Part shown: piece after piece, positions 1 to 29,781 of the stretch
Layout: every line of letters starts with the position of its first letter
Position numbering within the stretch: position 1 is the stretch's first letter
DNA from: a virus
Reading direction: 5' to 3' (one strand)
IMG/VR virus record: IMGVR_UViG_3300046387_000909
Location: 1-29,781 of that record
DNA: 29,781 bases
Notes under the pieces: generated by a model
Database searches by the model: none
The model's input: only the letters and a program-made list of their open reading frames with translations
Told to the model about the DNA's origin: nothing
Position numbers and translations under genes: made by a program

Positions 1-273
1 GCAACACTCGGACTCGACGAAATCGAGCGACTTGAGAAGCGTGGCGTACGACTGGCCGAGTCCTACGGGGCAGGCAGCGTCTTCAATCAAGAGAAACCCC
101 TTGAGGGCGTAGTCAGCAAACAACGCATACGCAACCGAAAGGCAGGCGACGTTCTGAACATCGGCTCAGGCACACGGTGTAAATCGTGTGGTATGCTTTA
201 CTTCTGCTGGGTTGACAACTGTCGAACATGCGGAACAAAGATGGACTTTAACTTGGGAACAAAGGAGGAATGA
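1..273 (+). CDS. C-terminal fragment of a zinc-ribbon protein (5' partial)
   Basis: The reading frame is open from the first base to a TGA at 271-273, giving the last 90 residues of a protein whose start lies outside the window. The visible part is a charged helical stretch followed by a cysteine cluster: C60-x2-C63, C69 and C74-x2-C77 (numbering from base 1). Two CxxC knuckles 10 residues apart are typical of a small zinc ribbon, here very close to the C-terminus. The function is not recognisable. Its place just upstream of virion genes suggests either the end of the head or packaging module or a small regulatory or assembly protein. The stop overlaps ATG 270-272 in an ATGA arrangement, and the ribosome binding site of the next gene (AAAGGAGG, 261-268) lies inside this coding sequence, so the two genes are probably co-translated. 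Confidence 0.75.
   Translation, partial: ATLGLDEIERLEKRGVRLAESYGAGSVFNQEKPLEGVVSKQRIRNRKAGDVLNIGSGTRCKSCGMLYFCWVDNCRTCGTKMDFNLGTKEE
261..268 (+). promoter_or_regulatory. Ribosome binding site deciding the start at 276
   Basis: AAAGGAGG is a strong Shine-Dalgarno sequence. Two in-frame ATGs follow, at 270 and 276. The first is only one base from the motif; the second is seven bases away, which is the usual spacing. The start at 276 is therefore preferred. Confidence 0.65.
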
Positions 274-275
274 CG

Positions 276-2285
276 ATGTGGATAGGTATACGCAAGGCTC
301 CTGATGACCCTAACATGGACGCGATGAAACAGCAACTAAAGCGCCTCATGCAAGGTAGCAAGGCTGCTGACATGAAGCAACGAATCGAACACATGCTGGG
401 CATGGGTATGGGACAAGAGCAAGCCGAGGATATGGCTCAAAAGTACGAAGAACATCTTGAGAAGCCGATTCAGGCTCGTATGGAAGAATTGCGTCAAACA
501 AGGCCTGAGATGGATGAAGGTCGACTTCGACGTCTCGCAGAAGCAGACATAATGACGCCCGGTAGTCCACATCGTGTCGCATCGCCCAAGGAAGCACCTC
601 AAGAATCTGAAAAGATAGGTGAGCGAGAACAACGCCCGTCTCTTGGACGAGGACAGGCGCCTGCCCCACGTGGTGAGTTTTTACAGCCTCTTCGTGAAGG
701 CGAGGATGAACGTCGTAAAAAGACTGTACAACTGGGTACAGAAAGTGGATTTGGTGGCTTCAATAAAGAAACTATACTACACGACCCAACAGGTCAACAC
801 CCGTTGTTTTACGGCAGTCCACGCAAGTTGCAAGATGCACAAGCAAAGCATCAGCAAGCATCACAGATGGCTGAGCGATTGCAACCGCCAATTGATAGGT
901 TGGAAACTCAGATTTTACGACTGAGAAGCAACAAAGACGAGGAGGGTAACGAACGTACTCCTACTCCTCAAGAATTAGCACAAGCCGACCAACTCGATGA
1001 AGTTCGATTCAAGTTGATGAACGACCTTTATCCTCACACGGAACGTATGCGAGAAGCAAAAGCCGAGATGGAAAAACACGGTCCGCAATCTCACATGAGT
1101 CTTGAGAAGTATCTCGGTCGAATGTTGAGTGGAGCATCAGCAGGTGCTCGTGACATGCAATTCGGCGGACAGGGGCGAAAGGGTGGAGTCGGATTGGCCG
1201 ACTTCCAACAGAAAATCTTGGGACAAGATGTTGCTGATGTAGGGCGAGGTTCAGGCGGTCAACAGGAAATGATTGACCGAATGTTTGAACTTCATCGAAC
1301 AGACCCGTTGAATCTAAGCAGTAACGTGTTGAATCACTTGAAGACCGAGGGCTTAGCCATCGATTTGGAACGTAGTCCAAGCATGGCGAACCTTGACATT
1401 GGCGAACAAACGGAGCGTCAAAAGAAACTGATTCAATATCAGATGCGAAGTGCTCAAAAGCAAGACGACTTTCTTGAGAACCTACGTGGTCGATACATGG
1501 CTAATCCAACAGCCGAAAACCTCCAAAAAATTATGGATGTTGACCGAAAACGAGAAGAACTCGCCACAGAAATCCGAAGACTAAATGCTCGGATGGAATC
1601 AGGTCACATGTCAGTCATGACGCCTGAGATACTTGCTGAACGTGTGTTCGGTCAAGGTCGAGACATGAGCAAAGACCCTACAATCGTTCGACCCGGAGAG
1701 GGCGAAGATGGTATGGACATGCGAATGGAAAACGCCCTCAACAATCTCGTTTCACGACTTGGGCTTGAAGAAGCACCTGCGAACGAAAGTGATGGCGAGC
1801 GAGCCATGCGTGAGCAACAACTTGTGAGCGCACGAAAACAATTCAGGGATTTAATTCAACAAGGAATGTCACTCGATGAAGTCAACGAACAAGTTCGACA
1901 GACTGTCGAGGATAGCAAAACTCGATTCGCAGGCGAAGCGGCGCCATACGGAGCCTTATCGGTCCTACAACCCGGACAAGGACTTTCTGAAGGTAAAGTC
2001 CGACAAGACTTCCCGCACGCTCCACAAGGCGAAGATTACACACTCGACGATTCAGATGCACCCCCAGTTGAGACTCCTGAAAAACCGAGTTGGATGGACT
2101 CGCAGAAGCAGGGAGCACGGGATAGAAGGCGATTTGGTGACCCGTTCGGAGACTTTGGTATGCAAGTTCCTGAAAAAGAGGAAGAAGACGAGGACGATGA
2201 TATGAAGCAAGCAGCATTCCCGATGGCACTCGGTGAACTTCTCATGAAGTCGGTACACGACCGTCTTTGGTGGCAAGGTCTATGA
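276..2285 (+). CDS. Helical Met/Gln/Glu-rich virion-associated protein, function unknown
   Basis: This is a 669-residue protein from ATG 276 (671 from ATG 270). I do not recognise its family. It is almost entirely charged and helix-prone, rich in Met, Gln, Glu and Arg. Heptad-like stretches occur near residues 1-90, in the middle, and around residues 385-440, so coiled coils are likely. A Pro/Gly-rich linker lies near residues 95-135. Close to the C-terminus is a very acidic run (about residues 632-643), followed by a roughly 27-residue hydrophobic/aromatic tail ending in RLWWQGL. There is no signal peptide or membrane segment. It sits between the zinc-ribbon fragment and the head-tail connector, a place where scaffold, minor capsid or internal virion proteins are often found. 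A scaffold or internal core protein is therefore possible, but this rests on position and composition only. Confidence 0.7.
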   Translation: MWIGIRKAPDDPNMDAMKQQLKRLMQGSKAADMKQRIEHMLGMGMGQEQAEDMAQKYEEHLEKPIQARMEELRQTRPEMDEGRLRRLAEADIMTPGSPHRVASPKEAPQESEKIGEREQRPSLGRGQAPAPRGEFLQPLREGEDERRKKTVQLGTESGFGGFNKETILHDPTGQHPLFYGSPRKLQDAQAKHQQASQMAERLQPPIDRLETQILRLRSNKDEEGNERTPTPQELAQADQLDEVRFKLMNDLYPHTERMREAKAEMEKHGPQSHMSLEKYLGRMLSGASAGARDMQFGGQGRKGGVGLADFQQKILGQDVADVGRGSGGQQEMIDRMFELHRTDPLNLSSNVLNHLKTEGLAIDLERSPSMANLDIGEQTERQKKLIQYQMRSAQKQDDFLENLRGRYMANPTAENLQKIMDVDRKREELATEIRRLNARMESGHMSVMTPEILAERVFGQGRDMSKDPTIVRPGEGEDGMDMRMENALNNLVSRLGLEEAPANESDGERAMREQQLVSARKQFRDLIQQGMSLDEVNEQVRQTVEDSKTRFAGEAAPYGALSVLQPGQGLSEGKVRQDFPHAPQGEDYTLDDSDAPPVETPEKPSWMDSQKQGARDRRRFGDPFGDFGMQVPEKEEEDEDDDMKQAAFPMALGELLMKSVHDRLWWQGL

Positions 2286-2320
2286 TGGAGAACCATCTGT
2301 GGGAGATGAGGGGATGACGC

Positions 2321-3976
2321 ATGCCAGTAGTATTCTCACCCGGTGAAGCGGAAACACGCCCTCTCAACCCCGAAGAAATCGTTTACACGACTGCACAAAA
2401 AGTCGCTGACTTACTTGGCATTGGACCGCAAGAAGCCGTCCTGATGTCAGCGAGTGCGGAAGCAAACGCGGTCTTTGTTACTGGTGCTGACTACAGAAAC
2501 ACCGGCTTTTCAGTTGGCGACATCATACTCATTTACAGTGATGCTGACCCAATGGGCGTCGAACAGACAATCACTGCAATTACATCAACTGCAAGCGGGG
2601 TGAAACTGGCCTTTTCGTCAGCAATCAATCCCGGCTTGTATGAAACAGCGGACAACGGCTATGTCCAAAACACTGCCTCCTTTACCAACGGTAAGACACG
2701 AGGCGTCACAAAATCACACGTCGAACAACGTATCAAAGAGATACAGGACCGCATCGACAACGTCACACACAACGCATGGCGACCGAGCCTTGTCATTGCT
2801 GAGTACATCAACTTCGATACCTACAAGCCCTACCGTCGACGATACTATGTCGATTACGTCGGCAGCACGCCACTGTTGTTCCGCAACGTGCAACAGATGC
2901 TTCGTATTGAACTGTGGCAGGGTGACGACTACCGTGAAATATGCAGTGCCGAGGCACGTGTTGAAATCGCTGACTACACCGCACTGAGAAACACAGACGA
3001 CAGTGGCAAGCGAATCGCTGTTTCGCCCGGAGGCGGAGGCTTTGGTCAATTGGTTGTAGGAACGGGAACTACGAATTGGGACGACCGCTTCGACAAAGTA
3101 TCAACAGCACAAAGTCTTGCCGACCTTATCAACAAAGAGGACCGTACGAATCGCAGTGCTATACCGCTGACTGAGACACAAGAAGGAGGCTCAAAGCAAC
3201 ACGATATTGATGGTGCGGCATTCACGTTACCCGTAGCAGGCGGCACGCAGTCTGTCAACGTCAATAACGAATTTTTGGCGACTGCGAATTCTGATTACGG
3301 TAATGGCAAATTGAAGATTACAAGCATGCGTCAAACCAAAGGTGGCGAATCTGCTACAATGGCTACAGACGCTACTACAGGTATCTCAATTAGTCAGACA
3401 ACGGCTGTTACAGGAACTATGACGTATGCTCGTGCAGGTGCGATATGGACAGTTGCTTCGGGTGACACAAGTGCCTTTGCTGACTACGGTGTCGCAGTTG
3501 CAGTCGCTGATGGACAGACAACTGCGCTGTTTGGTTATACAAGTAAAAACTCAACGCAGTTGCTCGACGTTCACTGGATGAATACTGAGCCTGTTCAAGC
3601 AACCAACTACACAATCACTCAACACCAATTCAAATCAGACATCGGTGCGTTCTCAGATGCGGGTGGCGACCAAGCCCGTCTCAAGGACTGGTGGATTGAC
3701 TACGAAATCGGTATGATTTATTTCAACAACTCATACCCGTTCTTTGAGCACAACGCTGTCAAGGTGTCCTACATTTATGGCGAGCGATACTTGGAGAAGG
3801 CTATTGAAGAGGCTGCTACAAAGATGGTGGCTGTCGACCTACTCATGGCTGACGACCGTTCTGTTCTCATCCCTGAGGGCAGTCAGAACGTACCGCTTGC
3901 ACAAAAGATTCAGATGTTCAAAGAAGAAGCCAACTCAATCTTGAACAGATACAAGGAGATAGTTGTCTTTGAGTGA
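2321..3976 (+). CDS. Putative head-tail connector (adaptor) protein with large beta insertion
   Basis: This is a 551-residue protein starting at ATG 2321, with GAGGGG seven bases upstream (2308-2313). The N-terminus holds a short helix (TAQKVADLLGI) and a beta module containing SVGDIILIYS. A helix follows near residues 133-156 (VEQRIKEIQDRIDNV). The middle (about 235-430) is a Thr/Ser/Gly-rich beta region. The C-terminal 70 residues form two helices separated by a loop. A segment of the form G-x-I-Y-F-x-N-x-x-P precedes the last helices, as in many tailed-virus adaptor and neck proteins. Helical ends enclosing beta inserts, plus the position directly before a tail-terminator-like gene, point to the ring joining portal and tail. 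Usual adaptors have about 100-200 residues, so this one is greatly enlarged. Homology is inferred from pattern and order. Confidence 0.6.
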   Translation: MPVVFSPGEAETRPLNPEEIVYTTAQKVADLLGIGPQEAVLMSASAEANAVFVTGADYRNTGFSVGDIILIYSDADPMGVEQTITAITSTASGVKLAFSSAINPGLYETADNGYVQNTASFTNGKTRGVTKSHVEQRIKEIQDRIDNVTHNAWRPSLVIAEYINFDTYKPYRRRYYVDYVGSTPLLFRNVQQMLRIELWQGDDYREICSAEARVEIADYTALRNTDDSGKRIAVSPGGGGFGQLVVGTGTTNWDDRFDKVSTAQSLADLINKEDRTNRSAIPLTETQEGGSKQHDIDGAAFTLPVAGGTQSVNVNNEFLATANSDYGNGKLKITSMRQTKGGESATMATDATTGISISQTTAVTGTMTYARAGAIWTVASGDTSAFADYGVAVAVADGQTTALFGYTSKNSTQLLDVHWMNTEPVQATNYTITQHQFKSDIGAFSDAGGDQARLKDWWIDYEIGMIYFNNSYPFFEHNAVKVSYIYGERYLEKAIEEAATKMVAVDLLMADDRSVLIPEGSQNVPLAQKIQMFKEEANSILNRYKEIVVFE

Positions 3977-3981
3977 TGAAC

Positions 3982-4416
3982 ATGAAGGAAGCACTCGACG
4001 TCGTTATTGAAAAGTTGGAGGCTTGGAACCGAGCCAACACAGGTAACATCAAGCCTGTCATCGCTGACATTGCTACAATCTCACCTGAGCGTGGTAAGCG
4101 TCAAGACTTACAGCGTTCAGACTTTGTGCTCGTATACGAGACAGCACACAACGAAGAAGTCCCTGACTTGCTGTACAACTTCGTTACAACACGTGTCAAC
4201 ATCACGGTCGATGTACGCACAGCCAAGAGCCGTTCACACCTGCAACTTCTTGAGAACGAGATTCGACGTCTCGTCCACGCTGCACGCAAGGGCGATGCGA
4301 CCAACTACGACCGCATGGTGTTCAAGACACGTACGGACCTCAGCGACCGTACCAAGCGACTTTTCAGGCATACGTTTCAAATAGAAGTCGTGACTCTCGC
4401 TGAATCAATAGCATAG
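3982..4416 (+). CDS. Tail terminator / tail completion-like protein
   Basis: This is a 144-residue protein. In-frame starts exist at GTG 3973, ATG 3976 and ATG 3982. I chose 3982 because GAGTGAT (3971-3977) lies four bases before it, the same layout as at other junctions in this operon. The N-terminus is a helix (MKEALDVVIEKLEAWN), followed by beta strands and a helix with RSHLQLLENEIRRLVH. The C-terminal hairpin contains LSDRTKRLFRHTFQIEVVTL (residues 119-138). A helix-strand-helix-strand order ending in an 'L.DR...LFR..F.IEV' strand is characteristic of tail terminator or tail completion proteins of the gpU / HK97 gp10 kind, which cap the tail tube and join it to the head. The position between connector and tail tube fits. 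The upstream stop is followed directly by a second TGA (TGATGA), and this gene ends in TAG inside the next gene's GGTGAT signal region. Confidence 0.6.
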   Translation: MKEALDVVIEKLEAWNRANTGNIKPVIADIATISPERGKRQDLQRSDFVLVYETAHNEEVPDLLYNFVTTRVNITVDVRTAKSRSHLQLLENEIRRLVHAARKGDATNYDRMVFKTRTDLSDRTKRLFRHTFQIEVVTLAESIA

Positions 4417-4424
4417 GTGATACA

Positions 4425-6458: not shown

Positions 6459-6467
6459 GTGATAGCC

Positions 6468-6707
6468 ATGCCAATGAAACATGCTATAGCACTTCATCCA
6501 CGCAACGAGATTGCTATCGTTGTCGAAGAGGAAGAAGAAGTATTCAATCCTGAGGCTGGTAAAGTCTCAGACGCCCCGTTCGGCGAACACGTCGCTCCCA
6601 GTGAGCCACGTGAGGCTGAGCAAGAAGCCCCCTCAGAAGAGGCTGCTTCAACTAAAACAGTGAGTGAGTTGGATGACAACACCGAAGAGAGTGATAATGG
6701 AAATTGA
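6468..6707 (+). CDS. Small acidic protein, function unknown
   Basis: This is a 79-residue protein from ATG 6468, four bases after a GAGTGAT signal (6458-6464 region). A GTG in frame at 6459 is possible but leaves no room for a ribosome binding site. The first 20 residues resemble a short beta hairpin (HAIALHPRNEIAIVV). The rest is low-complexity and rich in Glu, Ala, Pro, Ser and Thr, including a run of five Glu, and is probably disordered. It has no recognisable domain. It overlaps the next gene by 11 bases, which indicates tight translational coupling with the tail chaperone gene. By place it could be a small tail assembly factor or a minor tail decoration protein; this is only inference. 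Confidence 0.6.
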   Translation: MPMKHAIALHPRNEIAIVVEEEEEVFNPEAGKVSDAPFGEHVAPSEPREAEQEAPSEEAASTKTVSELDDNTEESDNGN

Positions 6708-7193: not shown

Positions 7194-7198
7194 GAACA

Positions 7199-7669
7199 AT
7201 GGTTGACGAAAAGATTGACACAGGTACGATGGAATCGATGAAGCGATTCTCCGAGTTTAGCGAAAAGTCACGTAACAACATGCGCTCGTTGCGTGAAGAG
7301 ATTCAAGAGTTCAACAAGGTCATGAACGCTGCTCATTCAACGACAGACAGCCTTCGTGAGTCCCTGCGACAGATGAGCAACGTACAGCCTGCACAACCAA
7401 TCACCGAAGCGCTTGAGGCGGAACGAACGACGGCTACAACAAACGCACGGGTTGCGAATTCCCCTAGCCCCGCACCATCTCAGTCAGCCGAGTCTGTTGG
7501 AATGAGTCAGAATGTCACCATCAATACGCTTCGCATCGACGTTAGCGGAGTAACCGACCGAAGCGACAAGCGAGCACTGGCACGTGAAATCAGCGAAATG
7601 GTTACAAAAGAACTGCGAGCAAAGATGGGCGGTCCGCTGTCCACATCAGGATTAAATCGAGGTGTTTGA
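7199..7669 (+). CDS. Short tape-measure-like tail protein
   Basis: This is a 156-residue protein from ATG 7199, preceded by GAGTGAG (7188-7194); GTG 7190 is in frame but falls inside the signal. Residues 1-65 are a charged helical region likely to form a coiled coil (MKRFSEFSEKSRNNMRSLRE). Residues 70-100 are a Pro/Ala/Ser/Thr linker. Residues 104-145 contain NVTINTLRIDVSGVTDRSDK followed by a helix ALAREISEMVTKELRAKM. That C-terminal pattern of a short strand, SGVTD and an amphipathic helix resembles the end of many tape measure proteins. The gene directly follows the chaperone pair, the fixed place for the tape measure. The oddity is its size: tape measures normally have 600-2,000 or more residues. 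It may be a minimal tape measure for a very short tail, or a separate initiator protein. Confidence 0.55.
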   Translation: MVDEKIDTGTMESMKRFSEFSEKSRNNMRSLREEIQEFNKVMNAAHSTTDSLRESLRQMSNVQPAQPITEALEAERTTATTNARVANSPSPAPSQSAESVGMSQNVTINTLRIDVSGVTDRSDKRALAREISEMVTKELRAKMGGPLSTSGLNRGV

Positions 7670-7676
7670 TTTGGTT
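7660..7676 (+). repeat. 17-base junction repeat, copy 1 (ribosome binding site plus TTG start)
   Basis: AGGTGTTTGATTTGGTT is identical to 10835-10851. It carries the upstream stop (TGA 7667-7669), an AGGTG ribosome binding site and a TTG six bases later. Both copies sit at the same kind of gene junction. Confidence 0.8.
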
Positions 7677-9398: not shown

Positions 9399-9407
9399 GG
9401 TGAAAAG

Positions 9408-10844: not shown

Positions 10845-10851
10845 TTTGGTT
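10835..10851 (+). repeat. 17-base junction repeat, copy 2 (ribosome binding site plus TTG start)
   Basis: It is an exact copy of 7660-7676. It contains TGA 10842-10844 of the upstream gene, AGGTG, and TTG 10846 six bases later, the probable start of the giant gene. Confidence 0.8.
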
Positions 10852-22800: not shown

Positions 22801-25800
22801 CTTGCTTGTCGAAGTGCATCCAACAAACCGTATGAAGATGAATTCTTGGGTAGTAGTGATGTGGTCGACAAGGGATTCGGTCGTGACCCGCTTGTATGGT
22901 TCAGCGGACCGACGGCAGCGTTTGCCCCGTCTGACATTCACGGTGGCGCGTTTACGCTCATGACTGAGACGAAGGTCAAATACGATGGTTATGGTATCGC
23001 TGCATCGAACGGTTCGGCAGGGACAACCAACTCACAAGGCGGACATTCAATTGTGTTGGAAGCAGCAGGTACGTACACGCTTGACAATCACTTCCCTGAC
23101 CCGATGGAAGTCGGAGCGTATCAGATTATCATTCAGCCGAACGTGTTCTCACAACAGATTACTGGTTACCATCTCAATCACAGCGATGCAACCAAAGCCC
23201 CATCTGAGTCAGGTACGAAGGTAACTGAATTAACAGGGCAACAAGTCAACACTGTCATCGCCATAGAGCATGACAAATCCAACCTTGGTGCAATGACGCT
23301 TGTCCTTGCCGAAGCAACGATGGCCGACGTAAGAGGTTGTGAAATCATCATCAACGAAGTCATACTTGACTTGGAACCTGATGCGGGAAGTCAATTCACC
23401 AACATACCTACACTGGGATTGTATAACCCGCTTGGCGTTGATGAAACTGCTTCACCTGCGTTTACACGTCGTAGCCTGCCATATCGACCGAACATGTTTA
23501 TTCAAACAACACCGGGTATGACCACAACAGTACCATGGTGGGCACAGTTGCACAAAGATGGTGCACGCAACAGTTCGGCTGACGAGTTCAAGTTCCTTGA
23601 GTGGCACACACCCGACCATTACTATCAACTCAATCGACCTGCGTTTGGTGCGGTTGGTGCACAGATTACGCTTGCAGGTTTCTCAACAATCTACCCTGAC
23701 ATCTACGGTGAGCACTATCGGGCACGTAGCCTAAATCCAAGTTGCGTCGTCATTTCGTCTGATGCCAGCGCACAGACTGTCACAGTCGACAGCAACGAGT
23801 TGTTCCCTGTCGAGCCGTACTACGGTGAGGTGTTGGAGTATATCGATGCTGATGGTGAGCGTCGTACGGCTACTTACACTAATCGCACGGGTACACTGGC
23901 ACACGCTACATTGGCTGCTGCTACGATATTTGAAGGGGTATCGACAGCCAACCTGTTCTTTACAAACCTGACAGCAGGCACAGTCCTACGACTCAGCGGA
24001 CCATACGATAACAGAAAGGCAGGCGAGGTGTTCAAGGATTCCAAATCGAGCATTGCTACACGCACCCTTGCTCAGACGTTCGCAGGCACACGAGATACCA
24101 ACTCGTTACATACACCTGATGCATTCTTGTGTATGTGGCATCCAAATCTCGGTCGCCCCTATACATACTACTCAGATGACAGCAGTCGTTCGTTCTATAG
24201 CGCCACAGGTGCAGCCGACTCACCTGTCAACGAAGCATCGCTCAACAACATCCCTGAGCACTTTGAAACGATTCACTATCACGACTTCTTCTATGCAGCA
24301 TCAAAGGGTCCGTTTGCACTTGGCATGAAGTGGGTCGCTCCGCCGCACGATGCTGATAACGATGCTTCAACAGCCGACTTGCACGATGGAACGGTGTACA
24401 CCGCTGCACAGATGGATGCACTGGTCGACGGAACGGGTACACTCGACCACCAAGGTGGTACAGATGGCTCAGACAAATACAACTTTGCAGGTTACTGGCC
24501 GAGTGGTTCTCGTGGAGGCGCAGGTTCAAGTCGCCTCGACGGATTCCTTGAGGCTGTCATTGGATGGGGCGGTAAGTTGTTCGGCATCGATTGTGTAGGG
24601 TTCCGTGACGACAGCGGTATCGAAGAACGCACGTATGCACAGATGACTTCCGATTCAGACCATGCACGAAACACATGCTTCGGTTACCGGTTTTCGGTAA
24701 GACAGCCGTACAATCGACCACGGTGGTCTCCGTACGTGCGAGGGTGGATTGAAGGTACACAAGCCAACGCATTGCTCGGTTACTACCATGGTCCGTTTGT
24801 TCAGCAAGATAGCAAAACAGGTGGCTGGGATTACGTTGGTGCTGACACGTATCATGCATCTTCAAATCCCGACGGACAATCCGACGCAGACTTCCCCGCT
24901 ACCTACACTGGTATACTGGAGCGACTGACTCAAATCAGTGCTATGCTCAATCAAGACCAAATCGGTCGACAGGTACGATACAGCGACGGTCGTCGTATGA
25001 CACAACCGTTTGGTTGCCCTGTACGAACAGTGCGTAACTCTTCATCCGTTCGACGCATGTACCCGAATGACCACGCAGGTTTGGGTATTGCTGAACTTGC
25101 TCAGGCTCATCGCTTCTACTTAATTGACTGGTGGGGCAACACGCGTGGTGAAGACGTGCGTCGATTCCCAGTACGTGGGTTTGGTATTCGACCTGCGTGG
25201 GACCCTGAGGATGCTTACGCTGACACCAACGTTGCACATCGACCTGCTGCGAACAGCCTGTTCGGTGGTGACGGCACTGACCGTTACAGCGGTAACGCCA
25301 ACAATGACAACAACGCATCTTCAAACATGGGTACTGCGGACTGGTTTAACCCTGCCAGCGCCATGCGAGTGGGTGACCGTGGTGACGGACGTGGTGTTCG
25401 TTGGCCTACACACTTCAACGAGAGCCTGTTAGCCGATGTATCTGAAACAGTCGAGCCAACAGGATTGGTTGTCTCACAACCTACTGCTGAACCAACTGTA
25501 GGAAAAGGATTGATTCGCCCACGAAACGATGTACTACAAACTGACGAAGTCGAACGTGGTATCAGCAATCGACTTGGTCTTGCTGATGAAGATGGGTTGC
25601 TCAAACCGACCGCTATGGTCAGTGAAGGTGTTGAGTCAGTAACTGCTAACTCGCTGTTGGCCGAGCCTGTTGGCGGTGACGGCGTACGTGCGGGACTTGA
25701 CGTTGATACCCTTGGTGAACTCAATGACGGCATCAGTCGTGAGTACGTCATCATGAGCACAGAAGCACACAGCCTGCACACTGACCGTGAGGTCGGACAA

Positions 25801-26574
25801 CGTACGACACTGCGTGGAGCACTCAACATCGGCAGTCAGACACTTGGACATCTCGACATGACATCACTCTCTTGGAGTGGACAGCCTGTCAAGGGTGTAC
25901 TGCGTGTATCGAACGCTCACGCATTTTGGGCGCTCGGTGGCACATACGTGATGGATTGGTCGGTGCGAGAAGGTGTACTGTCCGACTTCGGCTGGGGTGC
26001 AACTGCTGCGGCTGATTCAACGAACCCGTATCAGGATGCGAACCATTCCCCAAAGATTGACCGTACGAACAACACGGACAGCACAATCGAGTTCTTACTG
26101 CGCCCAGTCATGACACTTGACAAGTCACACATCCAAATGTTCCGACACAACCCTGTTGTGACAGGCAGTACACCACAGGCCAGCCCGAACTTCTATGCAG
26201 CCACAGGTGGTTGCAAGTATGGCTTCTATGTCAGTGACGCACCGTCAGCCCGTACAGGTACGCCTTCGTCGCCTCCATACAAGCCAGTGTATGCCATCAA
26301 GCCTGCAAGTAGCGTGACCACTTCAACGAGCGACGGTCCGAAGATTCTTGGCGTCGACGTAACAGGATATACGAAGACTGATGTAACACAGCCAGTCGCT
26401 CGTATTGTCATGAGCGAAAACACGCTTGAGCACTTCCGCAGCGATGCACCTCGTCGATTGGCTGAGGACGGCGAGTCTGACTTCTCAGTGCAACCACGAC
26501 ACAGCCAAACCTTACACCCGAAGGGCAGTTCGGGCGATACGTCTTTTAACACGGGCGACCACAGTGGAGAGTGA
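10846..26574 (+). CDS. Giant tail-tip / host-recognition protein with N-terminal LamG-like lectin domain
   Basis: This is a single open frame of 15.7 kb, giving 5,242 residues from TTG 10846 (5,245 from GTG 10837). Residues about 8-246 show a LamG/concanavalin-like jelly roll: AMRFNGISDAVVVP, FTLEAWVIPDSGGIVWE, LSLRINGDVVATRTL, IFMGGQGGEFRGTIEAIHWA and LGLWRFEEP. The remainder is almost wholly beta-rich, with much Thr, Ser, Gly, Asn, Asp and His and scattered single cysteines. There is no membrane segment, no long coiled coil and no simple tandem repeat. Barrel-like modules recur near 13462-13640, 15319-15545 and 23740-24020. A His-rich patch (WHMDGGYHPGGHF) lies near residue 3031. An aromatic/Arg motif (YLIDWWGNTRGEDVRRFPVR) lies near residue 4758. 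The position between baseplate paralogs and the hub suggests a tail-tip adhesin or scaffold reaching the host surface. Tape-measure function is unlikely given the beta content. Confidence 0.65.
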   Translation: MVVSADSTYAMRFNGISDAVVVPMQKFAQDAGNYQKGASVNDTSIPNVLDAFTLEAWVIPDSGGIVWEYEHVMRLVVGAPSSSAPAAFQVKLRSKSTGDENTFTLSSARPITDSDGNVSHYDGVVYPRPATFAHDSYDALDGIKNNNAAVHDGHRELLQVAFVFDKRHLSLRINGDVVATRTLSTDHELVVYPTQIFMGGQGGEFRGTIEAIHWARGAHDSSVDSYAPVTTDSTLGLWRFEEPIEPISTILTLPSLSASTSANSTVTIGTTEAQSLIDTLTGKSGITSLDLTSTAYSAGNYTVTKNAANSESTITIPQVSFNLLINPLGYNRTTGVPNREAPERARLMNVDASAGTITVESIHLDFVSNATNGRRGLLMAHSASDAVIVIGDCLVDSGTGNQGVGTGTQFSNRQGQVVIDESDFENHGIVFSTRMSIVDDPYMKYSATTNMGRNFTAGHTGRHILNHVKSHPYIGMLPRPIESEVEQNIDGSASVMTATFAPQYANVRDAAPANSVVSFYDVSGPFTVAATAYTSVVQQVVENGMAGITDSKRNILALGVDDVSKFLLRSATSTSVDSLTTDSDEHIRHMTPSSVGRTAVLELPSLLQYDRPAVVQIKYSAVDITGRGIKHAATARLTTGISGSGTVLTFASVKQFGADTDTITADLISIGGEVAGASSITATISHSANTLTFSSATTGAFQSAATANAIVNSYLSHGALLVESTYPDVGEEVTSGTRIIDLIHTDVEAGEAVVHAAGGTITCIKTPQMVFNAGELNGDDEEGYQTERALDFTMCPDNYLPVHSSDSPQLNPRRIVSPRASNSARDSVFNKVVIIPASGGNDSFVIDSEAELVQSKQGQVRSSTGVFVNNGSGYSSGTTTINVDGANATNFFGAGTRLFSLSGVQLGTVASSTSTSITLAAGSVQAVVDNEELFYQPVASSIGTTSQSSGVHEVFDIISHTENGIQVDLVVQPSDRNRFTQLSKLFTNEQGTSVRANQFEIHYLMGRGRALTMSDGDAGTSVLRAHGLGADLAANSISVKGDGAPDSFVVKETMPGSPVVTVTLGGAGQGAINTKPTYNPSPTARLGWSTRRDCSARLSATSSTSVGVVPLNNKSSALASWGTYCFPKVGRIYFGVPVESGDSATKYASAEYTSKNGTSFTFASGTGHTGSGKFVLTDGSESDSFSAWLSATGAKVGSIIEVDDQFNEGSMCNDGTTINDRLFQTLDTVQHDYQLGTQYASTRAMVEIPLFDDFFFENEDEGIFPGPDNSMKLHLDPTYAAPTWAPNPVGRRAPSVAPEDPTVNSAFSTSIKTNSHRRGTVVSQPYESSNRRIYVQDYKVFPIATAAPVTVASIDGALRYRRAFLPSGEWVLYDTRNTAGYLEVAGSTTADDNWAFSKNFLQQLSVGVSIIPASGFQDMNYPSIADNPLVDSAGFEARRPYYYDRANVMTQGGNVDYGMKQYVSAVEFRAGPRANPHLKRIKNKRARSTCAFAFLANNLYLADITDFPKSIAHASNYKYRIAWWNGTVYKFAHYDTINTTTGLIALNNLDAGFSPQIGDEIILWDMHAPSGVYPEVKEDAFLNTTWANPYCNGGLRAGDTVWMNMHYTNPHAIEGLFCKSRGTLNEAEVWSGFLEGEGDFATTPRESIAMENFLIGNSCIETARNFVQHVNKTVELNYEALGLDATNAPTVAYIDPYQSTEEHARVLLYDVAHDREFIAFQDLWMQVQSSPQAATIGDEPEGAGTINNQTTGAGTGLDVANGFPSQNKSLASTTQSEFMEAAMAHKSTWNLNVDLSTHSTGYHGHTPSDPDIDGVQVRTNKAVMSGARDNANADHQQIDVSTTENSTFFDTPDGTRCIPVFLALKGIRTTSLDLSTHEESRLQHLPHWSDMDFVRRLTIDFGEIGMKDGIRNIEAAAREIVRLINQAGAPNGRTHARKPADQFFGESERFGLSRVANQADVTNGITDPTAAHLNAGFAATGSTHDPSPFWDKERAFASHDRGTHMGYMRAHLGRVVSDSGGKSGFSIIIHSTIPGASGRNFCVWLDNARGQLSYRPQFLIGHGGRFRNYWCQPDEMTGENMHPAPMPINRFGRPFAPITTLKEYLPPDEVDEPFRNNLEFGPETTGTSSNMASSTSEIASGRNSNTIIDESFEAKSPASQLIDGLRIGTPARARINFGGLTQAGIPGWAPDAGNWGFGRDQQDTRFEHIYGNNVAAFAQHGTVDATSTGGYIPDEQLRTDNIGDGQLYGIRFVDHRGKNHTIRMVYRQHGQAFANDLTVLPSTLDDEVVIHFDDRDVGQGGFTIGKHMFGEGDVCGEFTTGTKKKFKGNLWNNYPSPATGISATVQVVTVSGADALKITFTAPYDTGSTLNHPDILGYLGFPEKGMIQLNDVNSTGTPGNNGEPLYYQSRSNYGKAGASGVHYLYNVEGNTTAYGSGVTRIICPRMSFTSVLTDEVMAAAVEFALTMDDPNSEDVNKTTFDCTHMLAPDGRTLGEWGVSPTAIRVKSHSTSKRIIPLRKLFEVSREKDWGFQAGASVQATGTDHLGGLNSDEIADGARLDVGYIPKTVLHITTKYRGTNANTATPVLVDSANNVVDTIDWKQNLRGNTFYRTEGDRVIPCVNSPMINVHHTSSTAITLPASQYLYLITTPASTDTDSWAEKITVWLGSEESGIVSSKPGSTSTTELEFVADSAQWSGTIANSDILVRQGSIEYSSEVGGIRRAGSHHGEPFLHFRGAHDSPDHWVPLYFGGGFSGVTLDVNDGTQNDYSEFYEHPYSGGPTGSAGLQNVGEIAGSYALLDANAMLAMFPGTPYLDQHEGRNSMPFFNQDAMLSFDLDAGTSKFNAATGVTYTDSSTTVRCQRPSPIVLRFSHPHARYTATGNTTDHTTYMIFGPGQSVPHNFAAHEPQLSSIVTGGNGYSAVPTGKNLPNEIAHGAASRNGFSAHLPPTAEYQKGNVQGYNYVMNWEPSKGQPNSTLFAQTAGQGLFYDTQMTATNPPAHAHPMSYVFTNYAGVAMGASGLATTLARSCVWHMDGGYHPGGHFLDNHIERNPKHPVSTHRISTGSNAQQNPTVFRVSSLLGTAYLGTFGGDTNMTSNADYVVIDATRAQNAEELATIVSAGVNTFPGTDPLKAIGGTFLPSFQTAAKQDRYGWVELTMATGGYTAESGAAATLQANASIPTTLPQYGWLRITDGGSNVGFASYASYSSATFTLAKNLTTTTNIVDPTTKAAVTASTINGLGAGAVKIYVWTKAGTHRYNNTSEARNHMTQVHYSGYVDAVDRTKPIGAVGWSGEAYSYLNSYNGTQIGSTKFPAGKGAWHPFLGFNPYGAAESCLSGSSPVGADSMPASVTEQSCEIGLASRHLIAITHESEMPLIAKADRDGILCAGDWLDLKRGGNITHAGTTQWDTAKVHNRDRYVGPATAGPHVEAMMMTDVSSYPQTASYPAVGTETYWHSALGTSGIERADPCQSPTGDLFWDESKVTASQFHEDTATYGVTCKGVSTLTEYSATATGIYKFYKEEHPARNFNEEHIVWKRMDGGNLTMPAVNARGLGMVPWVYRKDGGAYKKVGEKILGNNRFSFETTNGAMFPIIQAQELSHPQLAEQNQFTTKIEDALLIPNEEIQFQSLQVVDDTGQEHRIAGGSPLGTVILDFRHLSDREIEGLSPALAGSGISPNLKIRLPDPDDIPGNIIVRPSFDRIQGYQNETMGSGGMQHPSQPQQAITDMFNNAQPGPRAWPTWENNGWEHLSQDGTDISTAKSKTRLGSPDSSVEGWSDHTNNNPLETAYEPHDRSLQFHITRMGVTMTHRDDVDELSFTSLSGDEIDVGSTPEPAVWKVTSEQSGGRWFLRVYDPTTNKGVLASYTNTGTNKFTGVVVSPDFVSFVTGKTGLKVVPSYFMPAGSTRFFASRRLRDHSEYSGSSPDMPNVDWVGMTGDTANAYLYLTNPKMTPMPIPRMGHHYVTPTMALLPGHYAHPAYQRMYDLHLACRSASNKPYEDEFLGSSDVVDKGFGRDPLVWFSGPTAAFAPSDIHGGAFTLMTETKVKYDGYGIAASNGSAGTTNSQGGHSIVLEAAGTYTLDNHFPDPMEVGAYQIIIQPNVFSQQITGYHLNHSDATKAPSESGTKVTELTGQQVNTVIAIEHDKSNLGAMTLVLAEATMADVRGCEIIINEVILDLEPDAGSQFTNIPTLGLYNPLGVDETASPAFTRRSLPYRPNMFIQTTPGMTTTVPWWAQLHKDGARNSSADEFKFLEWHTPDHYYQLNRPAFGAVGAQITLAGFSTIYPDIYGEHYRARSLNPSCVVISSDASAQTVTVDSNELFPVEPYYGEVLEYIDADGERRTATYTNRTGTLAHATLAAATIFEGVSTANLFFTNLTAGTVLRLSGPYDNRKAGEVFKDSKSSIATRTLAQTFAGTRDTNSLHTPDAFLCMWHPNLGRPYTYYSDDSSRSFYSATGAADSPVNEASLNNIPEHFETIHYHDFFYAASKGPFALGMKWVAPPHDADNDASTADLHDGTVYTAAQMDALVDGTGTLDHQGGTDGSDKYNFAGYWPSGSRGGAGSSRLDGFLEAVIGWGGKLFGIDCVGFRDDSGIEERTYAQMTSDSDHARNTCFGYRFSVRQPYNRPRWSPYVRGWIEGTQANALLGYYHGPFVQQDSKTGGWDYVGADTYHASSNPDGQSDADFPATYTGILERLTQISAMLNQDQIGRQVRYSDGRRMTQPFGCPVRTVRNSSSVRRMYPNDHAGLGIAELAQAHRFYLIDWWGNTRGEDVRRFPVRGFGIRPAWDPEDAYADTNVAHRPAANSLFGGDGTDRYSGNANNDNNASSNMGTADWFNPASAMRVGDRGDGRGVRWPTHFNESLLADVSETVEPTGLVVSQPTAEPTVGKGLIRPRNDVLQTDEVERGISNRLGLADEDGLLKPTAMVSEGVESVTANSLLAEPVGGDGVRAGLDVDTLGELNDGISREYVIMSTEAHSLHTDREVGQRTTLRGALNIGSQTLGHLDMTSLSWSGQPVKGVLRVSNAHAFWALGGTYVMDWSVREGVLSDFGWGATAAADSTNPYQDANHSPKIDRTNNTDSTIEFLLRPVMTLDKSHIQMFRHNPVVTGSTPQASPNFYAATGGCKYGFYVSDAPSARTGTPSSPPYKPVYAIKPASSVTTSTSDGPKILGVDVTGYTKTDVTQPVARIVMSENTLEHFRSDAPRRLAEDGESDFSVQPRHSQTLHPKGSSGDTSFNTGDHSGE

Positions 26575-26578
26575 TAGC

Positions 26579-27169
26579 GTGACACCGATGGATGAGGCTT
26601 GGCGGGTTTTGAAAACTGAGTTCTTGTTTGAAGATGCTCCGAGGGAGCAGACTATGCCTGCTGGCTTTGTCCCTCATAGTTTTAGTCCCGACTGGCTTTC
26701 AAACATTGAAAGTAATCCCGCCCAAGCGAACATCAACTTAGGCCATAGTAAGTTTCCACAAGAGGTAGAAAAAATAACAGGTGGTGAATTTCAAACGCCT
26801 GAATACCCATACGATAAAGAAGGTGTAATCAATAGTTATTGGAAAAATTATGATAAGAAGTTCGACCCCGCACTTATTGACAGTATGACTGATTTACTAC
26901 GACACGAATCTGTGCATGAAACTCTCAATAACGTTCCTGAAATGAGACAAGCGCTCGCACATGCAGTTAGCGAAGGCAAGAAAGGTAATTTAGAACCTTA
27001 CAAGCAGTGGTTGGTTGTTCACGAAACTATGGCTAATTTCCAGCCACCCGATTTCAAGGGTGAAAAAGAAAACGTCAAGAATTTCATATGGAATAATCCC
27101 AAGTTCAGCCACAGTGACTTGCACGAAGAAGCGCAAAAAGTCAGACAAGGTGGATGGAAAGGAGAGTGA
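26579..27169 (+). CDS. Putative HExxH zinc metallopeptidase
   Basis: This is a 196-residue protein from GTG 26579, three bases after GAGTGAT (26569-26575). An internal ATG at 26588 is an alternative. The central helix contains LLRHESVHETLNN, with H109-E110-S-V-H113 forming a classic HExxH zinc-binding and catalytic motif. About 35 residues later a second helix carries VVHETMANF, where E149 could be the third zinc ligand, as in gluzincins of the ImmA/IrrE or similar kinds that have a downstream E-x-x-A-N helix. The N-terminal 80 residues are Pro/Asn-rich. There is no signal peptide. Lying between the giant tail protein and the hub, it may process a virion protein, or be carried in the tail to cut a cell-surface protein. 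The motif is visible; activity and target are inference. Confidence 0.6.
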   Translation: MTPMDEAWRVLKTEFLFEDAPREQTMPAGFVPHSFSPDWLSNIESNPAQANINLGHSKFPQEVEKITGGEFQTPEYPYDKEGVINSYWKNYDKKFDPALIDSMTDLLRHESVHETLNNVPEMRQALAHAVSEGKKGNLEPYKQWLVVHETMANFQPPDFKGEKENVKNFIWNNPKFSHSDLHEEAQKVRQGGWKGE

Positions 27170-27173
27170 TAGG

Positions 27174-28574
27174 ATGGCTGACGCATACAACAGAACGACA
27201 GGGCGATTTAGCGAAGCCCAGTCAACTGTCATGAAGCGTGTTCGCAAACCGTCGTTTGTTGACAACGCTGTGCGTCACGCTACGTACGTGTCGTCGGCTA
27301 CCAAGCGTGTAGCAGGCTCGCCTGTGCGTACAGACTTTGAGTCGTCGACCGACAAGACCTACACACTATCAGAAGAGGACGACACCATCCGAATCGAACA
27401 CACATCGTCGGGTGGGAACAGATTCAGGGGCGGTGTCTTCCACGGAGACGACCAGTTCGACGCTTCGTCGACTGTCCCCTCGCTGTTTGTCAATGTCGAT
27501 GACAGTAAACAACGTCTCGCACCACATTCTATAGAAACAGCAACGAAGGGTACACGAATTCGCCTGAATAACCTCAAGGGTCGCAGCCTGATTGACATGG
27601 GATTCGACGGTAAGCGCTTGCAAATCGCACAACCAGTGGCTGTCGGCCTTCGGACGAGTGACTTGGCTGAACGAATCGTCACGGAGGGTAGGAAAACACT
27701 CTCAGGTTTCCGTATTTCGGCACCAAGTAACGTGTTTGTGGCAAAGAATATCAACAATGTGGACGCTTTGACTGCTTTGCGATACTTAGCAAGGCACGAT
27801 GGCTTCATGACAAAGACCGACTCTCATGGAATGGTTAGTTACGTGCATCAGTTGCGTGGCAATAGGTCGGTTTACATTCATCAAGACATGGTTTCTGACG
27901 GTATCAACGAAGAAAACATGGACGCAGCACCGAATAGAGTAACTGTGCGTGGAAAACGACGTGCGAACAATGACGATAACATCATTCAGGTCGACGATAT
28001 TGAGTCTCAGAAGGATGGAGTGCGTGAAGTGCAGGGTGGTATCTTTGCACCGACGGCAAACAACCGTAATGCGACCAAAAACATCGGTCGGAAGTTCTTG
28101 GCTACTGCAAAGCGTGCAAAAGGAGCCAAAATGTTGACCGGAACCATCAATTCGATGGCTGTACGTGCCGGTGACATCGTTTCGTTCCAAGATATTGGCG
28201 AAAAAACCCAAGATATTGTCCTACGAGTGCGTCACAACCTCACCGAGCGCCGTTCTGACATCAAAGTGTCGTCAATAGAGGGTAGTTTGGAAGATTTGAT
28301 ACAACGAGCGCAAGAAGGCGACATTTCTTCGATGTTTGACGACGGACAAGAGGAAAAACAGCAGGTCAAAGAGAAAAACTACGCTGTCAGCGCTACAATG
28401 ACCGTCAAAACCACTTGGGTCATCGCTGCAAGGCAAGTTCGACCCGAAGGAATGATAATTGGGCATCCTACAAGGGGATTGATTAAAGGAGATGGCTCAG
28501 TAGCCGAAGCAGACAACGTATTGTTGACGCTGGGGACATCTCAATCGAAATGGATAGTAAAGGGGAATGGTTGA
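27174..28574 (+). CDS. Tail hub protein, gpD/gp27-like
   Basis: This is a 466-residue protein from ATG 27174, three bases after GAGTGAT (27164-27170). Several features follow the late-control gpD / T4 gp27 hub plan. There is an N-terminal beta domain with an FRGGVFHGDDQFD segment. Near residues 185-226 comes a helix and hairpin (VDALTALRYLARHDGFMTKT, then GMVSYVHQ). Near residues 253-290 is a strand NRVTVRGKRR, then VDDIESQKDGVREVQGG. Next is a long helix (ATKNIGRKFLATAKRAKGAK), and MAVRAGDIVSFQDI near residue 327, the usual 'pGDiV' barrel strand. The hub forms the ring below the tube through which the tail tip is attached. A Glu/Gln/Lys-rich linker near residue 395 precedes a C-terminal extension of about 70 residues that could bind the spike or fibre adaptor. 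Its own upstream stop is doubled (TGATAG). Confidence 0.65.
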   Translation: MADAYNRTTGRFSEAQSTVMKRVRKPSFVDNAVRHATYVSSATKRVAGSPVRTDFESSTDKTYTLSEEDDTIRIEHTSSGGNRFRGGVFHGDDQFDASSTVPSLFVNVDDSKQRLAPHSIETATKGTRIRLNNLKGRSLIDMGFDGKRLQIAQPVAVGLRTSDLAERIVTEGRKTLSGFRISAPSNVFVAKNINNVDALTALRYLARHDGFMTKTDSHGMVSYVHQLRGNRSVYIHQDMVSDGINEENMDAAPNRVTVRGKRRANNDDNIIQVDDIESQKDGVREVQGGIFAPTANNRNATKNIGRKFLATAKRAKGAKMLTGTINSMAVRAGDIVSFQDIGEKTQDIVLRVRHNLTERRSDIKVSSIEGSLEDLIQRAQEGDISSMFDDGQEEKQQVKEKNYAVSATMTVKTTWVIAARQVRPEGMIIGHPTRGLIKGDGSVAEADNVLLTLGTSQSKWIVKGNG

Positions 28575-28907
28575 ATGCCGTTATTAACATCAGGACACCG
28601 ATTTGTAGTGGATAAGTTGGCTGAGGAGATTACGCAAGTGGTCTTTGGCTTTGACGGAGGTATTGCCACCAGTGAAGACGGCGGAGCAGGTCGCCCTGCT
28701 GTCACAGTCACACCTGTCGTGCGTATTGTCGATGACAACACCATTTCAGTCGAGGCTAAACTGACGACGACTGATTCATTTACCTTACCTCTCCGAGAGG
28801 TGTGCATTCGCTCGGCTGACCGAGCATTGTTCCGATACACGTACGACGCAATCACGAAGTCAAACGACACGGAACTGATATTCTCAACAATCATCGAGGT
28901 GAACTAA
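28575..28907 (+). CDS. Small baseplate / tail-fibre adaptor-like protein
   Basis: This is a 110-residue protein from ATG 28575, immediately after the upstream TGA (28572-28574), with AAAGGGGA (28559-28566) eight bases before the start. A short N-terminal helix (VDKLAEEITQVVFG) is followed by a Gly-rich loop and a beta sandwich. It contains LREVCIRSADRALFRYTYD, then a final strand LIFSTIIEV. The order 'REvgi...ALFrYtYd.i.Ks...l.f...Iev' resembles small proteins found at the baseplate rim next to fibre genes in many tailed viruses, where they attach fibres or regulate their number. The gene is followed at once by a fibre-like gene, which supports the idea. I cannot name a family with certainty. 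Confidence 0.5.
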   Translation: MPLLTSGHRFVVDKLAEEITQVVFGFDGGIATSEDGGAGRPAVTVTPVVRIVDDNTISVEAKLTTTDSFTLPLREVCIRSADRALFRYTYDAITKSNDTELIFSTIIEVN

Positions 28908-28908
28908 C

Positions 28909-29781
28909 ATGGTCAACCCACTATCAGGACATACAACTGGACAAACCGCATCATCTGAATCGTTGAAAGACGGTGCAGGGCTAACGAGCACATCACTCAC
29001 AAATCTGTACGAAGGGTTGCACGGCAACGGTATCATTCGACTTGACGACCGTGCATACGGGGACACCAATCGTCAGAACACAGGTACGAACACTGCGGGT
29101 CACGTCACCGTGTCCGGTAGTGGTTCGGTTACCGTGTATGGTGGCTATGCCTCGCTTGGTGGTATCTTGTATTCTTTTGCCAACGGCCCGAACTCGTCAA
29201 AAACGTATACAGCAGGCGACACTACATGGCATCTCGGCTCACTACCATCTGTACCTTCATCGAATTCAGATGTGATTGTCACAGTTTACGTTGTGGCTGA
29301 CAACAACACTGGTGTTGCAAACGTCAAACATCATTTCGGTACACCTGTTGTAACATCGACGGGTACGCCTCTTACATCTGATTCTTTTTTATCACAGCCT
29401 CAAGGTTCAGGGGCTGGGGTAAAAAATGAAGAAGCAACAGTTCTTGCTGTCCTACGATATACGATGACAGGCGGAGCAGCAAACGTTACTGCTTCGCTCA
29501 ATACACCTACTGTAAGTGACAAGCGTTGTCTGCTCAGCAACAGCCCAATGTACTTGACACCACTAACATCAGGTGCTACAGGTGGCTACGCCAGTGGAGA
29601 ATCTATCGACCATGCCAACCGTTCGCTCGACACCATGAATTCTGTTGTAGGAGGCACGCAATCAGGTGCGTTCAACGCTTCGCCACTCGGAGCAATATGG
29701 CAAAGTCACAGCCCTGACGGGCACGCAGTGTTGTACTACAGTGCCCGACGTGACCAAGGTGGCTCGCCTGCTCGGAATACA
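28909..29781 (+). CDS. Tail fibre-like protein (3' partial)
   Basis: The frame is open from ATG 28909 to the last base, giving 291 residues of an incomplete protein. GAGGTGA (28896-28902) lies six bases before the start and overlaps the end of the previous gene, so the two are translationally coupled. An N-terminal Ser/Thr-rich segment with a short helix (SLTNLYEGLHGNGI) is followed by RLDDRAYGDTNRQ. A beta-rich part comes next, with regular Gly, Ser, Thr and Val (GHVTVSGSGSVTVYGGYA, SDVIVTVYVVAD). The C-terminal visible part has YYSARRDQGG. Composition and position beside the adaptor fit a fibre or receptor-binding protein, or a structural partner of the giant protein. No catalytic motif is visible, and the missing C-terminus would be needed to decide. 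Confidence 0.5.
   Translation, partial: MVNPLSGHTTGQTASSESLKDGAGLTSTSLTNLYEGLHGNGIIRLDDRAYGDTNRQNTGTNTAGHVTVSGSGSVTVYGGYASLGGILYSFANGPNSSKTYTAGDTTWHLGSLPSVPSSNSDVIVTVYVVADNNTGVANVKHHFGTPVVTSTGTPLTSDSFLSQPQGSGAGVKNEEATVLAVLRYTMTGGAANVTASLNTPTVSDKRCLLSNSPMYLTPLTSGATGGYASGESIDHANRSLDTMNSVVGGTQSGAFNASPLGAIWQSHSPDGHAVLYYSARRDQGGSPARNT

What the first reader, a model, noticed from the sequence alone, without database searches (positions are those of the whole stretch)
1..29781. GATC appears to be completely absent from 29.8 kb
I read the sequence line by line and found no GATC, although GAT and ATC are each frequent and GATC is its own reverse complement. With equal base frequencies about 116 copies would be expected (29,778/256). 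A complete lack is far outside chance and is the classic footprint of long selection by a restriction system of MboI/DpnII-type specificity, or by a host defence that acts at GATC. The giant gene alone (15.7 kb) avoids it throughout, so codon choice has been shaped by it.
Basis: partly seen in the sequence, partly recalled or inferred. Interest (0 to 1): 0.85.

Follow-up and report, generated by a model that had tools for sequence, protein, structure and literature searches.

The report
Archaeal virus purged of restriction sites
A virus, probably of ocean archaea, has removed every copy of several short DNA words that cell defence enzymes cut, and its relatives have each removed their own set, so their genomes may record which cutting enzymes their uncultured hosts carry.

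Summary
Confirmed: GATC occurs 0 times in 29,781 bp (Markov expectation 121; synonymous-codon shuffle 94±8). Three more words are missing: AGCT (109 expected), CCWGG (32), CCAGA (17). The window is one record of a tailed-virus group weakly related to haloarchaeal Druskaviridae, probably magroviruses of Poseidoniales. In an 81-row set GATC is absent in 72, AGCT in 74, CCWGG in all 61 that could be scored. Members differ: up to 28 known restriction specificities (some overlapping) are missing from one 107-kb contig, and 26 of its 28 missing 6-mers lie in known enzyme sites. Among loci that purge GATC or CCWGG, all 9 with one C5 methyltransferase recognition motif keep AGCT, while 17 of 35 with other C5 enzymes lack it; at least four Poseidoniales genomes carry that motif. 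GATC is partly back in several contigs with an adenine-type methyltransferase, with one truncated exception. Some Poseidoniales carry Dam/DpnM-like methyltransferases, two beside a nuclease-like gene. GATC, AGCT and CCWGG are the most depleted of 20 words in a 254-kb Poseidoniales sample. Best reading: host restriction-modification drives site loss, offset by viral methyltransferases; a known strategy, here unusually broad. Host and cleavage are inferred.

The parts
1..29781 (.). Whole virus record, free of GATC, AGCT, CCWGG and CCAGA; CGCG, CTAG and GGCC depleted
   Evidence: record size
10837..26574 (+). Giant ORF, 5245 aa (role not determined), free of all four words through synonymous codon choice
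   Evidence: long ORFs of 3703-5624 aa in relatives G003, G001, G011, G022
2321..3976 (+). ORF 551 aa, used to find relatives; its last 107 residues match HCTV-1 gene 117, five genes after that virus's major capsid gene
   Evidence: phrog_17057 E 5e-25; tblastn 29% identity, E 5e-7 to HCTV-1; gene order
3973..4416 (+). ORF 147 aa, matches phrog_19972 (function unknown)
   Evidence: E 1e-5
4425..6458 (+). ORF 677 aa, weak match to a phage tail tube family (and an equally weak one to Lactamase_B)
   Evidence: PF18906 E 0.009 and PF00753 E 0.007, both below the curated cut-offs
270..2285 (+). ORF 671 aa, no family match
7662..9398 (+). ORF 578 aa, no family match
9408..10844 (+). ORF 478 aa, no family match
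27015..28574 (+). ORF 519 aa, no family match

Best explanation
The window is part of the structural region of a tailed archaeal virus (magrovirus-like; host most likely Poseidoniales). Its genome has been purged of the recognition sites of type II restriction-modification systems met in its hosts: GATC, AGCT, CCWGG and CCAGA here. Each uncut genome survives entry into a restricting host, a new site is lethal or costly, so selection, largely on synonymous codons, holds the count at zero. A virus that acquires a methyltransferase for a motif can methylate its own DNA, selection relaxes, and the motif drifts back; contact with a new enzyme purges again. Shown: the absences, their match to known restriction sites, their turnover on the tree, and the link between one methyltransferase recognition motif and AGCT. 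Inferred: the host, cleavage by host enzymes, and the specificities of the enzymes.
For: Counts and codon-shuffle null. Absence across the group, with different extra words in different clades: fewest changes on the tree are GATC 3, AGCT 2, ACGT 10, CGCG 14, CTAG 10, GTAC 7. Missing words decode to known restriction specificities, including degenerate sets such as CYCGRG, GTYRAC and RAATTY. Missing 6-mers lie in known sites in 26 of 28 for G006 against 251 of 1769 other 6-mers, and in 8 of 9 for G001 against 287 of 1833. In 32 simulated sequences that keep 4-mer content (8 contigs, 4 each), at most one extra missing word appeared beyond the inherited 4-mers. AGCT is kept in G014, G015 and G040, each with a 262-aa C5 methyltransferase, and in two further carriers L361 and L362. 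All 20 viral loci with its recognition motif keep AGCT, while 17 of 131 with other C5 enzymes lack it; within loci that purge GATC or CCWGG it is 0 of 9 lacking AGCT against 17 of 35. G006's enzyme is 48% identical overall but has another recognition region, and that virus lacks AGCT. At least four of 318 Poseidoniales genomes carry the same recognition motif. Dam/DpnM-like enzymes occur in Poseidoniales, two beside a candidate nuclease. GATC 0.52, AGCT 0.58 and CCWGG 0.71 are the three lowest of 20 words in 254 kb of Poseidoniales loci, and stay so when possibly viral loci are dropped. The cultured relative HCTV-1 lacks GATC (0/430) and CATG (0/215).
Against: No cleavage or methylation data exist for this virus or host. 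No nuclease gene was recognised next to the AGCT-type host methyltransferases in the 1.9-3.3 kb read, and the Dam-like gene with a candidate nuclease was seen in only 2 of 318 genomes. G011 carries a truncated N6/N4 methyltransferase match yet has no GATC. Seven of eight GATC-keeping contigs searched show no such methyltransferase, though all seven are 20-60 kb pieces; likewise G043 keeps AGCT without a hit in 25 kb. GATC return is partial (about 0.3-0.4 of expectation) where a carrier is known. The host link rests on one contig in 1 of 318 genomes and on literature. In other contigs of that genome AGCT (0.87) is only sixth lowest of 20 words, and in 534 kb of rRNA-bearing loci TATA falls between GATC and AGCT.
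Confidence: 0.85

Rival explanations
1. Avoidance of methylation rather than of cutting: orphan host methyltransferases (GATC m6A, AGCT m4C, CCWGG m5C are typical persistent archaeal motifs) would mark viral DNA, harming viral functions or exposing it to methyl-directed (type IV, Mrr-like) nucleases, so the virus removes those words.
For: Persistent archaeal methyltransferases, mostly orphans, recognise GATC, AGCT, CCWGG, GTAC, CGCG and CTAG (PMC10609329, passages seen). A Haloferax restriction system (mrr) targets methylated GATC, and HF1-group virus isolates lack GATC (PMC7230728, passages). N6/N4-type methyltransferases match in 183 of 318 Poseidoniales genomes; in three loci read no nuclease gene was evident beside them. 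AGCT-type host enzymes look solitary.
Against: It does not explain the many 6-bp and asymmetric restriction sites missing, nor why viruses with their own AGCT-type methyltransferase keep the motif, unless viral marks block the host mark.
Confidence: 0.1
2. The virus encodes its own sequence-specific nucleases to degrade host DNA and therefore lacks their sites.
For: Apasviridae are reported to encode restriction-enzyme-like nucleases (PMC12999244, passages).
Against: Up to 28 specificities missing from one contig with 89 ORFs of 100 aa or more is too many; Poseidoniales DNA is itself depleted in the same three words. I did not search these viruses for nuclease families.
Confidence: 0.03
3. Sequencing, assembly or composition artefact.
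For: All sequences of the group are records of uncultivated viruses.
Against: The 80 loci come from 67 IMG ids (counted by hand). Other contigs of the Poseidoniales genome G366 have normal counts and no missing site. Many unrelated viral loci keep both words. A sequenced isolate, HCTV-1, shows the same kind of absence. Codon-shuffle and Markov nulls exclude composition.
Confidence: 0.02

Closest known systems
Restriction-site purging in haloarchaeal tailed viruses (HF1 group; Druskaviridae such as HCTV-1)
   Same: Complete loss of GATC and other palindromes; methyltransferase carriers keep the motif (PMC8651126 section 9 read; PMC7230728 passages; HCTV-1 counted over 93 of its 103 kb).
   Different: Here AGCT and CCWGG are lost in nearly all members (HCTV-1 keeps both); up to 28 specificities are lost, including asymmetric 6-mers; no QueC match in 50 of 50 records, whereas the paper says all Druskaviridae encode the preQ0/G+ pathway. 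HCTV-1 itself lacks 11 specificities.
Restriction-site avoidance of prokaryotic viruses in general
   Same: Loss of type II sites in dsDNA viruses (PMC6286503, abstract and passages).
   Different: That survey found no avoidance of type I or type IIG sites and complete or almost complete elimination in about a tenth of genomes. Here many sites are lost per contig, some of them type IIS or IIG by recalled enzyme class (Eco57I CTGAAG, BfuI GGATAC).
Magroviruses (order Magrovirales)
   Same: Long contigs up to 109 kb, family B DNA polymerase, weak relation to a Druskaviridae member, one homologue in a Poseidoniales genome (PMC12999244 passages).
   Different: Membership not established; habitat of the records is not told by any search. 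No mention of GATC, palindromes, restriction or methylation in the magrovirus survey PMC10160649 (term search of its text).

Membership tests
Restriction-site avoidance | Recognition sites absent beyond compositional and coding expectation | tested here: met
Restriction-site avoidance | Missing words coincide with known restriction specificities | tested here: met
   the window itself yields 4 such sites
Restriction-site avoidance | Site tolerated when the virus can methylate it | tested here: met
   AGCT: (by association, no enzyme assay); GATC only in part, with G011 as an exception
Restriction-site avoidance | Host restricts unmodified sites in infection | not testable with these tools
   uncultured virus and host
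Host GATC type II R-M of MboI/DpnII kind | Dam-family methyltransferase in candidate hosts | tested here: met
   TIGR00571 over cut-off in 4 of 4 tested; the L328 enzyme matches DpnM 2dpm, E 1e-45
Host GATC type II R-M of MboI/DpnII kind | Adjacent GATC endonuclease | tested here: inconclusive
   PF22518/PF22515 ORF (DUF6997/DUF6996) with a D...ExK-like stretch read by eye beside the methyltransferase in G063 and G074; no solved relative at E up to 1
Magrovirales | Marine dsDNA genome of about 90-110 kb with family B polymerase | tested here: inconclusive
   18 of 20 long relatives (56-109 kb, all classed linear) have PF00136; habitat not told; the window is a 29.8-kb record
Magrovirales | Capsid/terminase phylogeny within the order | not tested
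   no capsid or terminase gene recognised in the window; reference genomes not compared
Magrovirales | Poseidoniales host | tested here: inconclusive
   homologue on a 106-kb contig in 1 of 318 Poseidoniales genomes; could be a co-binned virus

The most novel reading that the evidence does not exclude
The missing words of these viruses are a readable restriction barcode. The genomes of one virus group record, clade by clade, the collective restriction repertoire of an uncultured archaeal order, up to about 25-28 specificities in one contig, including asymmetric type IIS/IIG-like sites whose type IIG class an earlier survey reported as not avoided. Motif return then marks an acquired viral methyltransferase and gives its specificity.
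Probability: 0.5. Interest if true: 0.75.

Novelty: new variant of a known kind. Interest (0 to 1): 0.62.

Why it matters
Restriction systems of uncultured archaea cannot readily be assayed, but their viruses' missing words predict them and give testable enzyme specificities. The natural pairs (virus with and without one methyltransferase) tie a target-recognition sequence to AGCT in both virus and host. The breadth of loss suggests these viruses meet a large shared pool of restriction systems.

Tried and rejected
Artefact and composition were rejected (see rivals). A solitary viral nuclease as general cause was rejected on number of sites, without a search for nuclease genes. Base modification by a preQ0 pathway was checked and not found: QueC in 0 of 50 records. 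PF02086 in the virus records gave no match over the cut-off in 50 and one weak match, in G011. G366:C2 was largely masked, so its counts (AGCT 0/38, CCWGG 0/15, GATC 30/73) come from readable parts of the first 86 kb only. The window's proteins gave two PHROG matches and weak Pfam ones. A first scan of genome contigs with the window protein found nothing. DNA search of window 1-8000 against phages found nothing. Host enzymes for CCWGG and CCAGA were not identified. A null simulation failed on N letters and was repeated with N handled. While checking this report I found that three loci of the host sample might be viral, so I recomputed without them and without the five loci lacking GATC or AGCT; the ranking held.
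Full report
Observation. GATC is absent from all 29,781 bases, against 120.7 expected from a second-order Markov model. A stricter null that keeps every protein and every gene's codon usage gives 94.4 (sd 7.8; 500 shuffles; minimum 64). The absence holds in each successive stretch of up to 5 kb. All are far below the codon-shuffle null. GTAC, ACGT and TCGA are at expectation under that null, and CATG and TGCA are above it, so this is not a general dislike of palindromes.

What the window is. It is a whole IMG/VR record. It holds a 551-aa protein whose last 107 residues match HCTV-1 gene 117 at 29% identity, five genes after the major capsid gene of that haloarchaeal virus, and a 5245-aa giant ORF. 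A scan for relatives of the 551-aa protein found 261 viral stretches, of which the best 80 were kept. Eighteen of 20 long relatives encode a family B polymerase. One homologue lies on a 106-kb contig in one of 318 Poseidoniales genomes; this could be an infecting or a co-binned virus. With the literature on magroviruses (PMC12999244, passages) a Poseidoniales host, and so a marine habitat, is likely but not proven; no call tells the habitat of the records, and capsid phylogeny was not tested.

The phenomenon spans the group and varies by clade. In the 81-row set (66 distinct proteins; whole contigs for 29 relatives, the fetched locus for the others; 'absent' means at most 5% of expectation), GATC is absent in 72, partial in 6 and present in 3; AGCT is absent in 74 and present in 7; CCWGG is absent in all 61 rows with enough expectation, and 20 rows could not be scored. 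Other words come and go: the fewest changes on the tree are 10 for ACGT, 14 for CGCG, 10 for CTAG and 7 for GTAC (quick tree, SH-aLRT support only, many near-identical rows). I fetched 29 whole contigs and screened them and the window against 366 known 4-6 bp specificities from Biopython's enzyme list. The window lacks 4. G001, a 103-kb contig whose 551-aa protein is 97% identical, lacks 12. G006, G007 and G013 lack 28, 27 and 25. Two contigs of 82 and 95 kb, G010 and G016, lack only 4 each. Some specificities overlap. Missing 6-mers are members of known sites in 26 of 28 cases in G006 against 251 of 1769 other 6-mers (p 8e-20), and 8 of 9 in G001 against 287 of 1833 (p 3e-6); the six other contigs tested behave alike. 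Third-order simulated sequences gave at most one missing word beyond the 4-mers they inherit, in 32 runs. Among loci of at least 18 kb, 42 of the 80 group loci qualify and lack a median of 4 specificities; 44 other viral loci lack a median of 1. That second set was fetched by methyltransferase homology, and thirteen loci allied to the group were left out of it. Several of those 44 also lack many sites, up to 10.

Methyltransferases and return of motifs. In 50 of the 80 records searched, C5 methyltransferases occur in 5. Three of these, G014, G015 and G040, share a 262-aa enzyme and are the only ones among the 29 fetched contigs that keep AGCT. Another searched AGCT-keeper, G043, is a 25-kb record without a hit; a 30-kb contig from the same metagenome id, L362, carries the enzyme at 92% identity and keeps AGCT. 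The other two, G006 and G019, carry C5 enzymes but lack AGCT. G006's enzyme is 48% identical to the 262-aa one but has a different recognition region. Across viral loci fetched by C5 enzymes, with AGCT expectation of at least 10, all 20 with the pattern WRR(1-4)R.N in a C5 reading frame keep AGCT, while 17 of 131 without it lack AGCT. Most loci do not purge anything, so the fairer comparison is within loci that lack GATC or CCWGG: 0 of 9 with the pattern lack AGCT, against 17 of 35 without. The loci are not independent and the pattern was drawn from this enzyme. All 20 printed examples go on with LTANMGTGGHNVPL. I infer AGCT specificity for that region. For GATC, among the eight GATC-keeping records only the 109-kb G003 has N6/N4 methyltransferases; the other seven are 20-60 kb pieces. 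Two more carriers of one of G003's enzymes, L441 and L442, also keep GATC at about 0.3 of expectation. The carriers of one D12-type enzyme, G366:C2, L438 and L439, keep it at about 0.4. Against this, G011 has a truncated N6/N4 match and no GATC.

Host side. D12 methyltransferases are over the cut-off in 35 of 318 Poseidoniales genomes, 15 of them at E below 1e-20; many of the weak ones are short matches, some lying on N6/N4-type genes. Four of four tested strong ones are Dam family (TIGR00571), and one matches DpnM at E 1e-45. In G063 and G074 the Dam-like gene adjoins a PF22518/PF22515 ORF with a D...ExK-like stretch; PF22518 occurs in 4 of 318 genomes. I take it as a candidate nuclease. The viral C5 enzyme matches something in 31 of 318 genomes; the four best matches, the only ones I inspected for it, carry the AGCT-type recognition motif, without a recognised nuclease gene in the 1.9-3.3 kb read. 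In 254 kb from 76 Poseidoniales loci (centred on R-M gene hits, so biased) GATC 0.52, AGCT 0.58 and CCWGG 0.71 are the three most depleted of 20 words, and remain so when eight doubtful loci are dropped. In 534 kb of loci found by the rRNA primer, a few of them not Poseidoniales, the order is GATC 0.61, TATA 0.69, AGCT 0.69, CCWGG 0.76. In 155 kb of other G366 contigs GATC is 0.70, CCWGG 0.82 and AGCT 0.87, with TATA and TTAA among the lowest. No specificity is missing from seven 20-kb pieces of G366 contigs.

Mechanism. Host restriction removes genomes that carry sites; selection acts largely through synonymous choice; viral methyltransferases substitute for purging. The main rival is avoidance of methylation by persistent orphan methyltransferases or of methyl-directed nucleases. 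It gains from the match with typical archaeal methylation motifs (PMC10609329, passages), but it does not account for the many 6-bp and asymmetric sites.

Known or new. Site loss is a known anti-restriction strategy (PMC6286503, abstract and passages). The purge-or-methylate rule has been stated for haloarchaeal tailed viruses (PMC8651126 section 9), and HF1-group haloviruses lack GATC and CTAG (PMC7230728, passages). HCTV-1 itself lacks GATC and CATG. In searches I found no report of this for marine archaeal viruses; I saw listings and opened only the papers named here plus PMC7962313 (term search, no GATC or palindromes) and PMC10768690 (passages). The library holds open-licence papers only, and key subscription papers were not seen. 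What seems new is the breadth, the asymmetric sites, the recognition motif shared by virus and host, and the lack of a QueC gene (0 of 50).

Noticed in passing
window 10837-26574: A 5245-aa giant ORF without any family match; long ORFs of relatives vary widely (1912 aa in G038 to 5624 aa in G022).
   Followed up: no
L551, L553, L554 (Poseidoniales): A roughly 320-aa N6/N4-type DNA methyltransferase with TSPPY sits beside a gene I read by eye as phosphoglycerate kinase in three loci; PF01555 matches occur in 183 of 318 Poseidoniales genomes. Looks like a widespread orphan enzyme of unknown specificity.
   Followed up: partly
L392, L395, L453, L454, L459, L517, L519: Other viral contigs (up to 166 kb), found through C5 methyltransferases, also lack 6-10 specificities; all seven loci lack GATC, AGCT and CTAG and have almost no CGCG, some also lack CCWGG, ACGT, GTAC or TCGA. 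L395 and L454 are one contig.
   Followed up: partly
G003, G022, G028, G029, G044, G038, G039, G042: In contigs where GATC is partly back, TGATCA is 0 of 119 GATC in G003 and 1 of 56 in G022; G038, G039 and G042 keep GATC (224, 150, 84 copies) but none as AGATCT or GGATCC.
   Followed up: no
L548 (Poseidoniales G357): The DUF6997-family ORF sits here beside a different, TSPPY-type methyltransferase, suggesting the family is a type II nuclease with several partners.
   Followed up: no
L328, L329 (Poseidoniales G074, G063): Pfam families DUF6997/DUF6996, unnamed in function, adjoin Dam-like methyltransferases: candidate GATC endonuclease family.
   Followed up: partly
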